NCBI RefSeq assembly: GCF_009392895.1
Contig: NZ_CP045488.1
Location: forward strand, 2,480,001-2,544,000
Reading direction: 5' to 3'
Length of the DNA stretch: 64,000 nucleotides
Origin: Natronorubrum aibiense
Lineage (GTDB): Archaea > Halobacteriota > Halobacteria > Halobacteriales > Natrialbaceae
Numbering within the stretch: the stretch's first letter is position 1; each line of letters opens with the position of its first letter. The notes under the pieces were generated by a model. It was given only the letters and a program-made list of their open reading frames with translations, had not been told where the DNA came from and did not search any database. Shown here one piece after another: positions 1,554-7,821 of the stretch. The translations under genes were made by a program, and so were the position numbers.

Positions 1554-2828
1554 ATGACAACGTCTAAACCTGCGTCGGAACCGGAAGAGGAGAGTGCCGT
1601 CGAAACAGCCCGTCGCCAACTCGAGCGCGCAGCCACTCACCTCGACGTCGACGAGGGGATCGTCGAACGGCTGCGACACCCGACGAGTGTCTACCGCGTA
1701 ACGATCCCGCTCGAACGCGACGACGGCAGTCGAGAGATGTTTACGGGCTATCGCGCCCACCACGACAGCGTTCGCGGACCGTACAAGGGCGGCCTTCGCT
1801 ACCACCCCGGTGTGACCGAGGAGGAATGTGTCGGCCTCTCGATGTGGATGACCTGGAAGTGTGCCGTCATGGACCTCCCCTTCGGCGGGGCGAAAGGCGG
1901 CGTCGTCGTCGATCCGAAAGACCTCAGCGAGACCGAGACCGAGCGACTCACTCGTCGGTTCGCAGAGGAACTGCGCCCCGTTATCGGCCCGATGAAAGAC
2001 ATCCCTGCACCAGACATGGGAACCGGCCCGCAGGAGATGGCGTGGTTCATGGACGCCTACTCGATGCAGCAAGGCGAGACCGAACCCGGCGTCGTCACCG
2101 GCAAACCGCCCGTCATCGGCGGCTCGTACGGCCGCGAGCGTGCACCCGGCCGGAGCGTCGGCATCATCACGCGAGAAGCGATCGACTACTACGACTGGGA
2201 CGTCGAAGACACCACCGTCGCCGTGCAGGGATTCGGGAGTGTCGGCGCTAACGCCGCCCGCTATCTCGACGACCTCGGAGCCTCCATCGTCGCCGTCTCG
2301 GACATCGACGGCGCAATCTACGATCCCGACGGCCTCGACACGACCGACGTCGAAGACCACGACGAGACGCCGGGCATGGTCTCGGGTTACGACGCCCCCG
2401 AAACGCTGTCGAACGACGAACTGCTGGAACTCGACGTCGACGTGCTCATTCCAGCCGCCATCGGGAACGTCCTGACCGGCGAGAACGCACGCGACGTGCA
2501 GGCCGATCTGATCGTCGAAGGCGCGAACGGTCCGACTACCTCGACGGCCGACCAGATCTTCGAGGAGCGCGGCGTGCCCGTCATCCCCGACATCGTCGCC
2601 AACGCCGGCGGGGTGACGGTGAGCTACTTCGAGTGGCTCCAGGACATCAACCGTCGCAAGTGGAGTCTCGAGCGCGTCCACCAAGAACTCGAAGACGAAA
2701 TGCTGCAGGCCTGGAGTGCTATTCGAACGGAGTACGACGCACGCGACGTCACCTGGCGCGATGCAACCTACATCGTCGCGCTGTCGCGGATCGCCGAGGC
2801 CCACGACGTGCGCGGACTCTGGCCATAG
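1554..2828 (+). CDS. gdh: Glutamate dehydrogenase (Glu/Leu/Phe/Val family), paralogue 1
   Basis: Reversible oxidative deamination of glutamate to 2-oxoglutarate with NAD(P), in the cytoplasm. The protein has 424 residues, the usual length for the hexameric family. The substrate-binding region holds GPYKGG (75-80) and catalytic Lys114 in GGAKGG; Asp154 lies in PAPDMGT. The dinucleotide-binding motif GFGSVG is at 226-231. The TATA-like GTTTTTATC near 1460 suggests an untranslated leader of about 60 bases. A second, clearly different paralogue lies at 6565 on the other side of the origin. Cofactor preference and physiological direction of each copy are not determined. Confidence 0.93.
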
Positions 2829-2885: not shown

Positions 2886-2912
2886 CCCACACCCCTCGTT
2901 CAGACTGAAACG
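2886..2912 (-). repeat. Origin recognition box a (distal, downstream of orc1)
   Basis: On the minus strand it reads as the shared core with one change (TTTCAGTCTGAAC), followed by GAGGGGTGTGGG. It sits between the ends of the convergent gdh and orc1 genes, about 1.6 kb from the other boxes. It matches the boxes at 4455, 4823, 4975 and 5254. Confidence 0.75.
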
Positions 2913-3010
2913 CACGAGTGGATACACTGTCGGCTCCGAGATCGAACCGAATCGGCGCAGTCGTCACGAAACGTCAGAAGCGTCAACAACAGCCCGTGAC
3001 GAGCAGGCGA

Positions 3011-4291
3011 TCAGGAAAACGAGGACAGATCGGCGTCGCGGTTATCTGCGGCACCCGTGTCCGCGAGCTGATCGTACGCCGGAAGCTCCTCGAGCGAGTC
3101 GTCCCGGCGAACGGCTTTGATGATGTGTTTCGGATCGGTAACGAGTCGATGGAGCAGGTAACTCCCCTGCGAGCGGCCGCCACCGGTCTTTTCAGACTCG
3201 ATCACGCCGAGGAAGGCCTGCTCTTTGAGCTGGCGATAGAGGCCGTTTTCGGTGATGGGGTCGGTCGTAACCATGTTACAGATGCCGACGTAGCGCTCGT
3301 AGATCTCTCGGGTCTTGTGGGTCTCGCGGTCGCCGGTGATGATCCGACTCGCCAGCGCGTAGAGGGCGAGTTTCGCGTGGACGGTCGCCCCGCTGGTGAG
3401 TTCCTCGATGCGGTTGATCTCGGCGACCTCCTGAGCCTGCTGGATGTGGCTCTCCGAGACGGTCTCCGAGCCAGTTCGACGGGCGAGTTCGCCGGCTTCT
3501 TTCAGGATCTCGATCGCTTTGCGGGCGTCGCCGTGTTTCTTGGCGGCCAGCGCCGCACAGAGTTCGATCGTGCCGTCCTCTAAGACCTCGGGCTGAAACG
3601 CGTCTTCGCGATTTCGCATGATTTCCCGGAGCTGTGAGGCGTCGTACGGGTGAAAGAACAGCTCTCGGTGCCCGAAGCTGCTGTCGATGCGTTCGTCGAG
3701 CGTCTCCCGATACTTGACCTTGTTACTGATGCCGATCACGCCGATGTAGGCGTCCGTCTTCTGAGCCTCGCGAGCCCGCGAGAGTTGCATCAGAATGTTG
3801 CTGTTGTCCAGTTTGTCGATCTCGTCTAAGATGACGATGATCGCGTCGAAAAAGTTCTCGAGGATCCCCCAGATGTGCTGGTAGTACTCCATCGTTCCGA
3901 CGCCCCGCAGCGGGATGTTCTCCTGATAGCCGGTCTGGTCCTTCAGACTGAGCGCCAACTGGCGCGTCGCGCGCGTTTCCGTGTTCGCTTCGGAGCAGTC
4001 GATGTAGAGCACGCCACAGTCGATATCGTTGCTTCGGGCGGCCGTCTGTGCTCGAGTGGCGACGTGTCTCGAGATGAGACTCTTTCCGGTACCGGTTTTG
4101 CCGTAGATCATCACGTTGTTCGGCGGATCGCCTCGCGTGATCGCCCCAACCTCGGCGGCGACGGACTGGATCTCGTCGTCCCGACCGACGATACGGTCTT
4201 CGTCGGGAACGTGACCCACGTGGAGGAGCTCTTTCCGATCGAAGATCGGATCGTGAGATTGGAAAAGCGGGTCCCCTGCCTGTTCAGCCAT
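3011..4291 (-). CDS. orc1: Orc1/Cdc6 replication initiator (AAA+ ATPase)
   Basis: Binds origin recognition boxes and starts chromosome or megaplasmid replication. The ORF extends to 4315, but ATG 4291 is chosen because TATA-like TTTTATTATG lies 22-32 bases ahead of it, right for a leaderless transcript. The result is 426 residues, normal for the family. Walker A GKTGTGKS is at 64-71 and Walker B ILDEID at 154-159; sensor-1 GISN lies near 188. The last 120 or so residues form the winged-helix DNA-binding domain. It is transcribed away from the AT-rich core, the usual haloarchaeal arrangement of initiator next to its own origin. Confidence 0.95.
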   Translation of the reverse strand: MAEQAGDPLFQSHDPIFDRKELLHVGHVPDEDRIVGRDDEIQSVAAEVGAITRGDPPNNVMIYGKTGTGKSLISRHVATRAQTAARSNDIDCGVLYIDCSEANTETRATRQLALSLKDQTGYQENIPLRGVGTMEYYQHIWGILENFFDAIIVILDEIDKLDNSNILMQLSRAREAQKTDAYIGVIGISNKVKYRETLDERIDSSFGHRELFFHPYDASQLREIMRNREDAFQPEVLEDGTIELCAALAAKKHGDARKAIEILKEAGELARRTGSETVSESHIQQAQEVAEINRIEELTSGATVHAKLALYALASRIITGDRETHKTREIYERYVGICNMVTTDPITENGLYRQLKEQAFLGVIESEKTGGGRSQGSYLLHRLVTDPKHIIKAVRRDDSLEELPAYDQLADTGAADNRDADLSSFS

Positions 4292-4310
4292 GTCTCCGTT
4301 CTTGGAGACA
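4291..4310. promoter_or_regulatory. Hairpin/operator at the orc1 initiation region
   Basis: Perfect seven-base arms TGTCTCC and GGAGACA with loop GTTCTT. The repeat occupies exactly the space between the TATA box (4313-4323) and the ATG of orc1. It could be an operator over the transcription start or a hairpin at the 5' end of the mRNA. Confidence 0.45.
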
Positions 4311-4334
4311 CACATAATAAAACTATGGAAGGTA

Positions 4335-4347
4335 GTTCAGACTGATA
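4335..4347 (-). repeat. ORB half-site at the orc1 promoter
   Basis: On the minus strand this reads TATCAGTCTGAAC, one mismatch from the 13-base core of box a; the G-rich half is missing. It lies 12 bases ahead of the orc1 TATA box, where a bound initiator could touch the transcription machinery. This suggests autoregulation, by inference. Confidence 0.5.
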
Positions 4348-4454
4348 ACAGCGGAGGAGACGTATTAATTCGGGGTATTTCACCCGTCTTCGCTTCGAAT
4401 AGGGTTGCCCCGCATGCAGACTGTACCGGACACGGGACACTGAGTGGGTCAGTA

Positions 4455-4482
4455 CCCCCCACACCCCTCGTTCAGAGTGAAA
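4455..4482 (-). repeat. Origin recognition box b
   Basis: On the minus strand: TTTCACTCTGAACGAGGGGT followed by GTGGGGGG. It is the left arm of the inverted ORB pair around the AT-rich core. A second G-rich stretch follows at 4491-4510. Confidence 0.85.
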
Positions 4483-4571
4483 GAGGGTCCGAGGGTGGGG
4501 GTGGTGTGGGACGACTGGTGAAATAGACGAACGTGGTGTAGACTGATCAGTGGAACGTGCAAGATGCGGTG

Positions 4572-4597
4572 TATCGTAACGTTCGGTGGTTACGATA
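4572..4597. repeat. Inverted repeat of a second origin motif (GTTACGATA)
   Basis: Perfect nine-base arms TATCGTAAC (4572-4580) and GTTACGATA (4589-4597), loop of eight. The same motif recurs as TTACGATAG at 4700-4708 and CTATCGTAAC at 5094-5103. It is unrelated to the ORB. Confidence 0.6.
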
Positions 4598-4639
4598 GCC
4601 ACCGTGGCTACAGACCGTCGTTCGTGCCTCCTCTCGATC

Positions 4640-4745
4640 GTTTCTCCTATTAGTTCTCTTCTAGGTTCACCTACCTAGCTAGTATAGTACGATTATATCT
4701 TACGATAGAGGAATATCTTGACAACCTCTTGGGTATGCTACCAAC
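4640..4745. other. AT-rich core, candidate DNA-unwinding element
   Basis: This is the longest AT-rich stretch in the gene-free region. It contains TATTAG, CTAGTATAGTA, TTATATCTTA and GAATATCTTG, and lies between oppositely oriented ORBs b and c. A small inverted repeat, CTAGGT/ACCTAG with a six-base loop, is at 4661-4678. Confidence 0.65.
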
Positions 4746-4822
4746 GATCATAACAACACTCGAGTACAGTCTCCCAGCAAAATTCCCATCGCTGTCAGGG
4801 TGGGGGGGATCGTCGTCTCCCG

Positions 4823-4848
4823 TTTTCACTCTGAACGAGGGGTGGGGG
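4823..4848 (+). repeat. Origin recognition box c
   Basis: Plus strand: full core TTTCACTCTGAACGAGGGGT followed by a G run. It mirrors box b across the AT-rich core. Confidence 0.85.
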
Positions 4849-4974
4849 CCCGATAGCCAGCAACGACGTCAACGGATCGATCAAAACCACTTAGGTACAG
4901 GCTCGTTCTCGAGTTCCCCCTCCTTCAAAGGAAGCCTGCGTCGCACACCGAACGGCGACGATGGCGTCAGCAGC

Positions 4975-4999
4975 GTTTCACTCTGAACGACGGGTCCCT
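4975..4999 (+). repeat. Origin recognition box d (degenerate G end)
   Basis: The core GTTTCACTCTGAACGA is intact, but the G-rich end is altered (CGGGTCCCTC). It is probably a weaker site. Confidence 0.7.
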
Positions 5000-5253
5000 C
5001 CGTTTCGGTGACTGTTCCGTTCCGCTCGAGACGACGTATCCTTTCAGTCGGATGGATTCCACTGACGGAGAGTCGAGGTTCGATTAGGTGCTCCTATCGT
5101 AACAACTGAAACCGATCACACAGCGACCGTGCGAGCAGGTGTGCACCGATTTTCAGCGGCTACTATCGGTGTAGTAAGTATACACTGGCATTCTCTGGCC
5201 GTGTTCGCAGACACTGGGCCTCGGGTCGTCACTGCCGGATCGTATCGAACCAT

Positions 5254-5277
5254 TTTTCACTCTGAATGGGGGGTGTC
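5254..5277 (+). repeat. Origin recognition box e
   Basis: TTTTCACTCTGAA followed by TGGGGGGTGTC. The core changes only after GAA, and the G string is kept. It is the outermost box on the right. Confidence 0.75.
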
Positions 5278-5407
5278 TGTCAATCCCCGTCTCCCGAACG
5301 GGTCATCACAGCTCCGACCGGTGCCGTAGCCGGTCAGTTCGTTTCTCGAGTTGCGTCGGTGTCGTGCTACGACTGTTCCGTGTGGCACGGTTCCGACCGA
5401 CAGTACA

Positions 5408-5416
5408 CCTTTACTC
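5408..5416 (+). promoter_or_regulatory. TATA box for the CitE-type lyase
   Basis: CCTTTACTC lies 23-31 bases ahead of ATG 5439. This supports that start over the upstream in-frame ATG at 5364 and implies a leaderless mRNA. Confidence 0.5.
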
Positions 5417-5438
5417 ATGGGTCGTAGAGACTGTCCGT

Positions 5439-6317
5439 ATGGGACGTCGAAGCGTCATGTTTACACCAGGGGATCGCCCAGAAATGCTTCGGAAATCGCC
5501 CGCTGCAGGGGCTGATGTGATCGTATTCGATCTCGAAGATGCGGTCGCTCCACAGCGAAAGCCCGATGCGCGCGAGACGGTTCGTGAGATACTCGCCGAC
5601 CCGATGTTCGATCCGGACTGTGAGGTCTGTATCCGCGTCAACGCCAGTGAGTCAGCTATCGCAGCCGACCTCGAGACCATCCTCCAATCGATCGATGACA
5701 GCACCGTTCGGTTCGATAGCGTGATGCTCCCGAAAGTCATGTCACCAGCGGACGTGCAGGGACTCGAAGATGAACTCGCAACATATGACGTCTCGAAACC
5801 GATCTTCGCGCTGATCGAGAACGCTGCGGGCGTCCTCGCCGCACCGGAGATCGCCGCTGTTCCGGCGACTGACGCGCTCGTTTTCGGCGCCGAAGATCTC
5901 TCGGCGGATCTCGGAGCAACGCGCACTGCCGACGGAACCGAAGTCCTCTACGCGCGCGAACGTGTCGTCCTCGCTGCCGCCGCACACGACTGTACAGCGA
6001 TCGACACGCTCGTCACCGATTTCAGAGACGAAGACCAACTGTGCGAGGACACCGCGTTTTCGGTCCAACTCGGCTACGACGGAAAACTGGCAATCCACCC
6101 CACACAGGTCGACCCGATCAACGAGGCGTTTACGCCCTCGACGGACGACCGCGAGTGGGCCCGTCGCGTCCTCGAGGCCAAACGGAACGCCGATGCCGAG
6201 GGACGGGGCGTCTTCGAGGTCGACGGCGAGATGATCGACGCTCCGTTGATCGCTCAGGCCGAACGGATCCGCTCACGAGCCGTCGCAGCCGATCAGTGGC
6301 ACGAACCGAGCCACTGA
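5439..6317 (+). CDS. HpcH/HpaI aldolase / citrate lyase beta (CitE)-type lyase
   Basis: The CitE/malyl-CoA lyase superfamily cleaves or forms a C-C bond in an acyl-CoA such as (beta-methyl)malyl-CoA, with Mg2+. This copy has 292 residues, family length. Visible motifs are FTPGDRP near the N-terminus, FDLEDAV with the metal-binding acidic residues, RVN, GAEDL and LAIHPTQV. Haloarchaea use such a lyase in the methylaspartate cycle, where glutamate dehydrogenase also acts, and gdh paralogue 2 follows downstream on the same strand. A role in that cycle is therefore plausible, but other genes of the cycle are absent from the window. The stop codon lies in a tandem 21-base duplication. Confidence 0.85.
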   Translation: MGRRSVMFTPGDRPEMLRKSPAAGADVIVFDLEDAVAPQRKPDARETVREILADPMFDPDCEVCIRVNASESAIAADLETILQSIDDSTVRFDSVMLPKVMSPADVQGLEDELATYDVSKPIFALIENAAGVLAAPEIAAVPATDALVFGAEDLSADLGATRTADGTEVLYARERVVLAAAAHDCTAIDTLVTDFRDEDQLCEDTAFSVQLGYDGKLAIHPTQVDPINEAFTPSTDDREWARRVLEAKRNADAEGRGVFEVDGEMIDAPLIAQAERIRSRAVAADQWHEPSH

Positions 6318-6564: not shown

Positions 6565-7821
6565 ATGTCAGGCGAAGCAAATCCGTTCGAAAGTCTCCAG
6601 TCTCAGATCGACGAGGCTGCTGTCCACCTCGAGATCGGCGACGACGTGATCGAACGGCTCAAACACCCGGAGCGAGTCCTCGAGACGAACCTCACGATCG
6701 AGCGTGACGACGGCGAACTCGAGCGGTTCAAGGCGTTCCGTTCGCAGTTCAACGGTGACCGCGGCCCGTACAAGGGCGGCATTCGCTACCACCCGCAGGT
6801 CTCCCGTGACGAAGTGAAGGCGCTGTCTGGCTGGATGGTCTACAAGTGTGCGACCGTCGGCATCCCCTACGGTGGCGGCAAAGGCGGGATCATCATCGAC
6901 CCCGACGAGTACTCCGAAACCGAACTCGAGCGCGTCACCCGCGCGTTCGCGAAGGAACTGCGCCCGCTGATCGGTGTGGACCGCGACATCCCTGCGCCCG
7001 ACGTGAACACGGGCCAGCGGGAGATGAACTGGATCAAAGACACCTACGAGACACTCGAGAACACCACGGAGCCGGGAGTCATCACGGGCAAAAATATCGC
7101 CAGCGGCGGCAGTGAGGGCCGTGTCGAGGCAACCGGCCGCTCGACCGTGCTGGCCGCCCGCGAGGCGTTCGACTACCTCGACAAGGACCTCGAGGGCGCG
7201 ACCGTCGCCGTGCAGGGCTACGGGAACGCCGGCTGGATCTCCGCGAAACTGATCGACGAGATGGGCGCGACCGTCGTCGCCGCCAGCGACTCGAGCGGCG
7301 GTATCTACAACCCCGACGGCTTCGACCCAGTTGCGGCGAAAGACCACAAAAACGAGACCGGCAGCATCGTCGGCTACGAGGAGGCAACGGAGGAAGTCAC
7401 CAACGAAGATATCCTGACGATGGATGTCGATCTGTTGATCCCTGCCGCCCTCGAGAACGCGATCGACGCCGACCTCGCCGAGGACGTCAAAGCCGGCGTC
7501 ATCTCCGAGGCCGCAAACGGGCCGCTGACGCCCGAGGCAGACGCCGTCCTCGAGGACAAAGACGTCTTCGTGATCCCGGACATCCTCGCCAACGCCGGCG
7601 GCGTCACCGTCAGCTACTTCGAGTGGGTCCAGAACCGCCAGCGCTTCTCCTGGACCGAAGAGCGCGTCAACGAGGAACTCGAGGCGCTCATCGTCGACGC
7701 CTTCGACGCCCTCGTCGAGACGATCGAGGAACACGACCTCGACAACCCACGAACCGCGGCGTACGTGGTGGCGCTCGAACGAGTCGCGAACGCGTTCGAG
7801 GAAGCCGGCACCTTCCCCTGA
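6565..7821 (+). CDS. gdh: Glutamate dehydrogenase, paralogue 2
   Basis: Cytoplasmic glutamate dehydrogenase of 418 residues, clearly homologous to the copy at 1554 but well diverged. Catalytic Lys106 lies in GGGKGG, with GPYKGG at 67-72, PAPDVNTG, and nucleotide-binding GYGNAG. The start is supported by a TATA box at the leaderless distance. It is on the same strand as the CitE-type gene but has its own promoter across a 247-base gap. Two copies with different promoters suggest different cofactors or separate anabolic and catabolic use; sequence alone does not settle this. Confidence 0.93.

What the first reader, a model, noticed from the sequence alone, without database searches (positions are those of the whole stretch)
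2886..5277. Haloarchaeal replication origin with an ORB core that differs from the classical oriC1 box
Seen: orc1 next to 1.1 kb without genes; five boxes sharing TTTCACTCTGAACGAGGGGT, the ones left of an AT-rich core on the minus strand and the ones right of it on the plus strand. Known: haloarchaeal origins have inverted ORBs with a G string around an unwinding element beside orc1/cdc6. Inference: this is an active or once active origin of a non-oriC1 type, possibly specific to this Orc1.
Basis: partly seen in the sequence, partly recalled or inferred. Interest (0 to 1): 0.75.

Follow-up and report, generated by a model that had tools for sequence, protein, structure and literature searches.

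The report
Second chromosomal replication origin, haloarchaeon
This is very probably a real starting point for DNA copying in a salt-loving archaeon, of a family-specific type that is a known kind, and comparing relatives shows that the initiator gene carries a truncated copy of its own DNA recognition site in its promoter, which suggests that it controls itself.

Summary
Observation confirmed. The five boxes are at the stated places and orientations. In the whole 4.35-Mb genome the motif recurs only beside one other orc gene: on contig C3, next to a 55%-identical paralogue, with a one-base variant (TGGACG for TGAACG). The locus is orc + AT-rich core + outward-facing inverted ORBs with G-strings, i.e. 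a haloarchaeal orc/cdc6-adjacent origin. It is not oriC1, which lies at 1.256 Mb with its own Orc1 and box. The Orc occurs in 60 of 125 Natrialbaceae genomes; motif and Orc co-occur almost without exception. Two genomes lack the orc but keep two box relics at the same gdhB/lyase site. Boxes are 92% identical between species against 37% for the rest of the intergenic region.

I infer initiation at the core, autoregulation at the half-ORB, titration by the downstream ORB. Skew is inconclusive; no activity data exist. New member of a known kind.

The parts
3011..4315 (-). orc1/cdc6 initiator gene (434-aa ORF; likely start ATG at 4291, 426 aa, probably leaderless mRNA)
   Evidence: TIGR02928 390 bits; PDB 2qby_A match over residues 23-406; RefSeq start of the N. 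bangense orthologue corresponds to 4291
4316..5438 (.). gene-free origin region upstream of orc
   Evidence: region-wide alignment
2891..2910 (-). downstream ORB, between orc and gdhB
   Evidence: a downstream box is present in 35 of 38 related loci
4315..4322 (-). TATA element TTTTATTA of orc, 24 nt before ATG 4291
4335..4346 (-). half-ORB ATCAGTCTGAAC (no G-string), fixed 16-17 nt from TATA
   Evidence: conserved in 38 of 39 loci
4408..4425 (-). degenerate ORB TACAGTCTGCATGCGGGG
   Evidence: core conserved in the 6-species alignment and, within 1-2 mismatches, in most Natrialbaceae loci
4463..4482 (-). proximal ORB, exact core, G-string outward (to about 4453)
   Evidence: the orc-nearest box has gene orientation in 36 of 37 loci
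4641..4740 (.). AT-rich core / putative duplex unwinding element; conserved stretch 4674-4705
   Evidence: 63% AT, highest in the region; conserved stretch alignment, mainly within Natronorubrum and near relatives
4824..4843 (+). inner distal ORB, exact core, G-string outward
4976..4995 (+). middle distal ORB
5255..5274 (+). outer distal ORB
1554..2828 (+). gdhB (glutamate dehydrogenase), left flanking gene, convergent with orc
   Evidence: NF041398 774 bits; synteny
5439..6317 (+). CoA ester lyase (CitE/HpcH type), right flanking gene
   Evidence: synteny
6565..7821 (+). second Glu/Leu dehydrogenase, conserved neighbour
   Evidence: synteny

Best explanation
The locus is a chromosomal replication origin of a family-specific, non-oriC1 haloarchaeal type. 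The Orc encoded at 3011-4315 binds the outward-facing inverted ORBs that flank the AT-rich core at 4641-4740 and loads MCM there (inferred from known archaeal origins). The same Orc probably also binds the half-ORB upstream of its own TATA box. Because the G-string side of an ORB in this orientation would fall on the BRE/TATA, the likely effect is autorepression (inferred; activation not excluded). The single ORB downstream of the gene probably lowers origin efficiency by titrating Orc, as shown for the ORB cluster downstream of Haloarcula hispanica cdc6E. Shown here: sequence, conservation, Orc-ORB linkage, relics. Inferred: binding, firing, regulation.
For: Motif unique to this locus and its sister on C3. 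Orc in 60 of 125 family genomes; boxes within 1 mismatch in 66 of 125. Of the 7 with boxes but without the Orc, five (G055, G056, G070, G071, G122) show TGGACG boxes, and G055, G070 and G122 were shown to carry a 53-54% C3-type Orc; G016 and G094 are orc-deleted scars at the same gdhB/lyase site. Box columns 92% identical against 37% outside in 6 species. Layout kept in 37 related loci. Orc tree: window clade 100/100, sister to C3-type 97/98, as the boxes are. Half-ORB 16-17 nt from TATA in 38 of 39 loci; in the Halobellus ramosii plasmid it stays at the promoter although the inverted ORB pair lies 2.7 kb away, with 5 tandem ORBs in 53-bp repeats downstream of orc. Across 13 orc genes of this genome, promoters match their own family's distal repeats (mean 3.4) better than other families' (0.67), 0 of 20,000 permutations.
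Against: No marker-frequency, 2D-gel or ARS data. No GC-skew signal; AT-skew minimum at 2.37 Mb in a broad basin, 110 kb from the locus, with a local maximum near the locus itself. The Orc is absent from about half of the family, so the origin is dispensable. H. hispanica and Haloferax examples show that ORB-bearing origins can be dormant (PMC3528665, PMC4595724).
Confidence: 0.8

Rival explanations
1. Dormant origin: all parts intact and bound by Orc, but it fires only when oriC1 or other origins fail.
For: Dormant origins with intact ORBs are documented (H. mediterranei oriC4, PMC4595724; H. hispanica oriC4/oriC5, PMC3528665). Many orc loci coexist in this genome; the Orc is absent from half of the family; no sharp skew change.
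Against: Strong purifying conservation of boxes, Orc and promoter element across dozens of species, stronger than expected for a spare part, though not excluded.
Confidence: 0.25
2. Not an origin now: Orc acts mainly as a transcription regulator and the boxes are its operators (compare Sulfolobus Orc1-2).
For: Half-ORB at the orc promoter; Orc1-2 of S. islandicus is a non-initiator that binds its own promoter (PMC9738581).
Against: Inverted ORBs with G-strings around an AT-rich core, up to 1 kb from the orc promoter, in the same layout in 37 loci; sister Orc with the same architecture on a separate replicon, C3; plasmid-borne member in Halobellus ramosii.
Confidence: 0.08
3. Relic of an integrated plasmid whose origin is decaying.
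For: Haloferacaceae members include a plasmid-borne copy; orc-less scars with two boxes exist in G016 and G094.
Against: Orc intact and 83-97% identical across the family, boxes near-identical, position syntenic with housekeeping genes in many genera; decay is seen only in a few genomes, not here.
Confidence: 0.05

Closest known systems
orc/cdc6-adjacent haloarchaeal replication origins with family-specific ORBs (Wu et al. 2012, PMC3528665)
   Same: orc gene next to an intergenic region with inverted ORBs, G-strings and an AT-rich element; ORB sequence specific to the Orc family.
   Different: A family found almost only in Natrialbaceae, plus a 72-74% branch in Haloferacaceae. Probably among the origins predicted there for Haloterrigena turkmenica and relatives (not verifiable here: supplements closed). 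The promoter half-ORB was not seen in the parts of that paper that I read.
Haloarcula hispanica oriC2-cdc6E with oriC2D (PMC3936714)
   Same: Non-oriC1 chromosomal origin with ORBs on both sides of the cdc6 gene; the downstream ORBs there act negatively, likely by titration.
   Different: Here usually one downstream ORB in Natrialbaceae (11 in oriC2D); tandem arrays of 3-5 were seen only in Haloferacaceae relatives. Different Orc family by distribution.
haloarchaeal oriC1 (this genome: C1 about 1,256,200-1,256,600)
   Same: Same plan: inverted ORBs with outward G-strings around an AT-rich core; boxes share the theme CTGAA(A)CGArGGGG.
   Different: oriC1 box TTCCACCTGAAACGAAGGGGTGGGGG next to a 544-aa Orc1 (367 bits to Sulfolobus Cdc6-1, against 188 for the window Orc).
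Origin on contig C3 of the same genome
   Same: Sister Orc (55%), same layout, box TTTCACTCTGGACGAGGGGT.
   Different: A to G at box position 11, plus a second box type close to TACACTCTTGAyGAGGGG.

Membership tests
haloarchaeal orc/cdc6-adjacent origin | Full-length Orc1/Cdc6 (over 300 aa, AAA+ and winged helix) | tested here: met
   434 aa; TIGR02928 390 bits; PDB 2qby_A over residues 23-406
haloarchaeal orc/cdc6-adjacent origin | At least two inverted ORBs with G-string in the intergenic region directly adjacent to orc | tested here: met
   4463-4482 (-) against 4824-4843, 4976-4995, 5255-5274 (+)
haloarchaeal orc/cdc6-adjacent origin | AT-rich element between the inverted ORBs | tested here: met
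   4641-4740, 63% AT, the most AT-rich 100-mer of the region
haloarchaeal orc/cdc6-adjacent origin | ORB sequence linked to the Orc family | tested here: met
   co-occurrence over 125 genomes and sister pairs
haloarchaeal orc/cdc6-adjacent origin | Autonomous replication or marker-frequency peak | not testable with these tools
   skew only: GC none, AT broad; no published test of this family found; J7 ARS primers do not match six Natrinema members
oriC1 | Initiator is the archaea-wide Orc1 (Cdc6-1 orthologue) | tested here: not met
   That protein is at C1 about 1.257 Mb; window Orc is in 48 of 392 genomes of the order, all but one in Natrialbaceae
oriC1 | oriC1 ORB sequence | tested here: not met
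   TTCCACCTGAAACGAAGGGGTGGGGG at oriC1 against TTTCACTCTGAACGAGGGGTGTGGGGG here
oriC2/oriC2D type control (H. hispanica) | ORB-rich region downstream of cdc6 that represses the origin | tested here: inconclusive
   A downstream ORB in 35 of 38 loci, usually one: present, not rich; effect not testable

The most novel reading that the evidence does not exclude
Haloarchaeal initiators are generally self-regulated through their own recognition box: each orc gene keeps a copy of its cognate ORB, often without the G-string, at its core promoter, so that Orc level, origin firing and titration by a downstream ORB form a DnaA-like feedback loop for each origin separately.
Probability: 0.45. Interest if true: 0.65.

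Novelty: new member of a known kind. Interest (0 to 1): 0.45.

Why it matters
How archaea with many origins keep each one in step is open. This locus offers a compact, well-conserved case with testable parts: a cognate Orc-ORB pair, a sister pair in the same cell that differs at one box position (A or G), natural orc-deletion scars, a half-ORB fixed at the initiator's own promoter, and one downstream ORB. The own-ORB-at-own-promoter pattern across 13 orc genes, if it holds in other genomes, would make autoregulation of archaeal initiators directly testable.

Tried and rejected
1) Cumulative GC skew over 73% of C1: no signal (permutation 0.92). AT skew: range significant (0.008), minimum at 2.37 Mb, but a local maximum near the locus; kept as inconclusive. 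2) First took the orc at 3.017 Mb (L020) for oriC1; rejected because its close orthologue (71-97%) was found only in Natrialbaceae and one other family. The true oriC1 is at 1.256 Mb. 3) Guessed that Natrinema J7 ARS-3 (5+1 ORBs, PMC5350488) is this family; none of the J7 primers matches the Natrinema loci convincingly and the gene-sized gap (1,207 bp) is too short; rejected. 5) Boxes with up to 4 mismatches missed the degenerate and half boxes; found by alignment instead.

Full report
CHECK. The five boxes are present at the stated places and strands. The orc ORF is 3011-4315 (-); the gap to the next gene is 4316-5438. The most AT-rich 100 bases of the gap are 4641-4740, between the inner inverted pair. 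In the whole genome (C1 3.35 Mb plus three smaller contigs) the pattern within 3 mismatches occurs at these five sites, at four sites on C3 as TTTCACTCTGGACGAGGGGT or near variants beside a 55% identical Orc, and at three scattered weak places; the reversed pattern gives none. Chance is excluded.

WHAT IT IS. The protein is a full Orc1/Cdc6. The genome encodes about 14 Orc-like loci, most with their own repeat family alongside. The archaea-wide Orc1 of oriC1 is a 544-aa protein at about 1.257 Mb of C1, the best of those tested against Sulfolobus Cdc6-1 (367 bits), with box TTCCACCTGAAACGAAGGGGTGGGGG in inverted copies around a CTAGT-rich AT core. The window origin is therefore a second, non-oriC1 chromosomal origin whose box keeps the same theme (CTGAA-CGAGGGG).

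COMPARISON. The Orc is found in 60 of 125 Natrialbaceae genomes at 83-97% identity and in 48 of 392 genomes sampled from the order, all but one of them in the family; Haloferacaceae relatives are 72-74% identical. Boxes within one mismatch occur in 66 of 125 genomes, the reversed control in none. One Orc-positive genome (G048) has only more divergent boxes. The seven genomes with boxes but no such Orc are five with the C3-type variant box TGGACG (C3-type Orc shown in G055, G070, G122) and two, G016 and G094, in which the same gdhB/lyase/gdh2 neighbourhood lacks orc and the origin core but keeps two boxes, one beside each flanking gene: deletion scars. The tree puts the window clade (100/100) next to the C3-type clade (97/98), so Orc and box are sister pairs.

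ANATOMY UNDER SELECTION. In an alignment of six species, the four upstream boxes are 92% identical to the window, the rest of the region 37%. In 38 loci: 2-5 upstream boxes in all but one (H. pallidum), the nearest to orc in gene orientation in 36 of 37 at about -140 to -240 in most, and a downstream box in 35 of 38. Two further elements emerged: a degenerate box (4408-4425) and an element at the orc promoter, TATCAGTCTGAACTACCTTCCATAGTTTTATTA, i.e. the first half of the ORB 16-17 nt before the TATA box. It is present in 38 of 39 loci, including three Haloferacaceae, where the half-box reads TTCACTCTGA or TTCACTTTGA like their own boxes. In the Halobellus ramosii plasmid the inverted ORB pair lies 2.7 kb upstream of orc, beyond a toxin-antitoxin pair, yet the half-ORB is still at the promoter, and five ORBs in tandem at 53-bp spacing follow orc; that plasmid has a second orc, so it does not prove self-sufficiency.

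GENERALITY. For 13 orc genes of this genome, 12-mers of the 110 bases before the start were compared with the distal flanks of every orc locus. Own-locus matches average 3.4 against 0.67 for other loci; the own locus is strictly best in 8 and best or tied in 10; 0 of 20,000 permutations reach the observed sum. Initiator promoters thus tend to carry their own family's box. The window orc itself scored only 1 on this strict test; its evidence is the cross-species conservation.

MECHANISM. Shown: sequence, linkage, conservation, relics. From established work: one Orc binds one ORB with polarity, the AAA+ part contacting the G-string, and inverted ORBs around an AT-rich region direct MCM loading (PMC7776575, PMC12141716); H. 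hispanica origins depend on their own cdc6, and ORBs downstream of cdc6E lower oriC2 activity, likely by titration (PMC3936714). Inferred: this Orc initiates at 4641-4740; it represses its own gene through the half-ORB, since in that orientation its body would cover BRE and TATA; the single downstream ORB is a mild titrator. An Orc paralogue binding its own promoter has a precedent in Sulfolobus Orc1-2 (PMC9738581).

LIMITS. No replication data. GC skew is uninformative; AT skew has a broad minimum basin (about 2.3-2.65 Mb) that includes the locus but no turn at it. The Natrinema J7 ARS tests do not appear to cover this family. Whether the 2012 survey listed this family could not be checked (supplements closed), but its genus set (Haloterrigena, Natrialba, Halopiger) makes that likely.

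VERDICT. Real origin module, new member of a known kind, with a conserved promoter half-ORB as the feature most worth testing.

Noticed in passing
L057 and L058 (Natronorubrum bangense chromosome NZ_CP031305.1 and plasmid NZ_CP031306.1): The whole 17.3-kb origin neighbourhood is letter-for-letter identical on chromosome and 828-kb plasmid; a genome with the same two-copy pattern (G101) is listed with 13% contamination. Either a large recent duplication or a mis-assembly.
   Followed up: partly
L269 7331-7567 (Halobellus ramosii plasmid): Iteron-like array of 4.5 units of 53 bp, each holding one ORB, directly downstream of orc; Halogeometricum pallidum (L094) has three ORBs at 58-bp spacing downstream and none found upstream.
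   Followed up: partly
L235 and L237 (genomes G016, G094): Natural deletion of orc and origin core between lyase and gdhB that left two boxes; in G094 both are still exact 20/20 copies, so the loss is recent or the boxes still matter.
   Followed up: partly
C3 55191-56436 (L205): The C3 origin mixes two box types, TTTCACTCTGGACGAGGGGT and one close to TACACTCTTGAyGAGGGG, one of the latter kind sitting at the orc promoter; possibly two Orc specificities or two binding modes.
   Followed up: partly
window 4291-4310: Inverted repeat TGTCTCC-GTTCTT-GGAGACA right at the orc start codon, between TATA and ATG; possible operator, only partly conserved in other Natronorubrum.
   Followed up: no
window 4674-4705 and L193 18519-18590: The AT-rich cores of different origins in this genome share CTAGT/ACTAG-rich sequence, perhaps a common origin motif comparable in role to the Sulfolobus ucm.
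   Followed up: no
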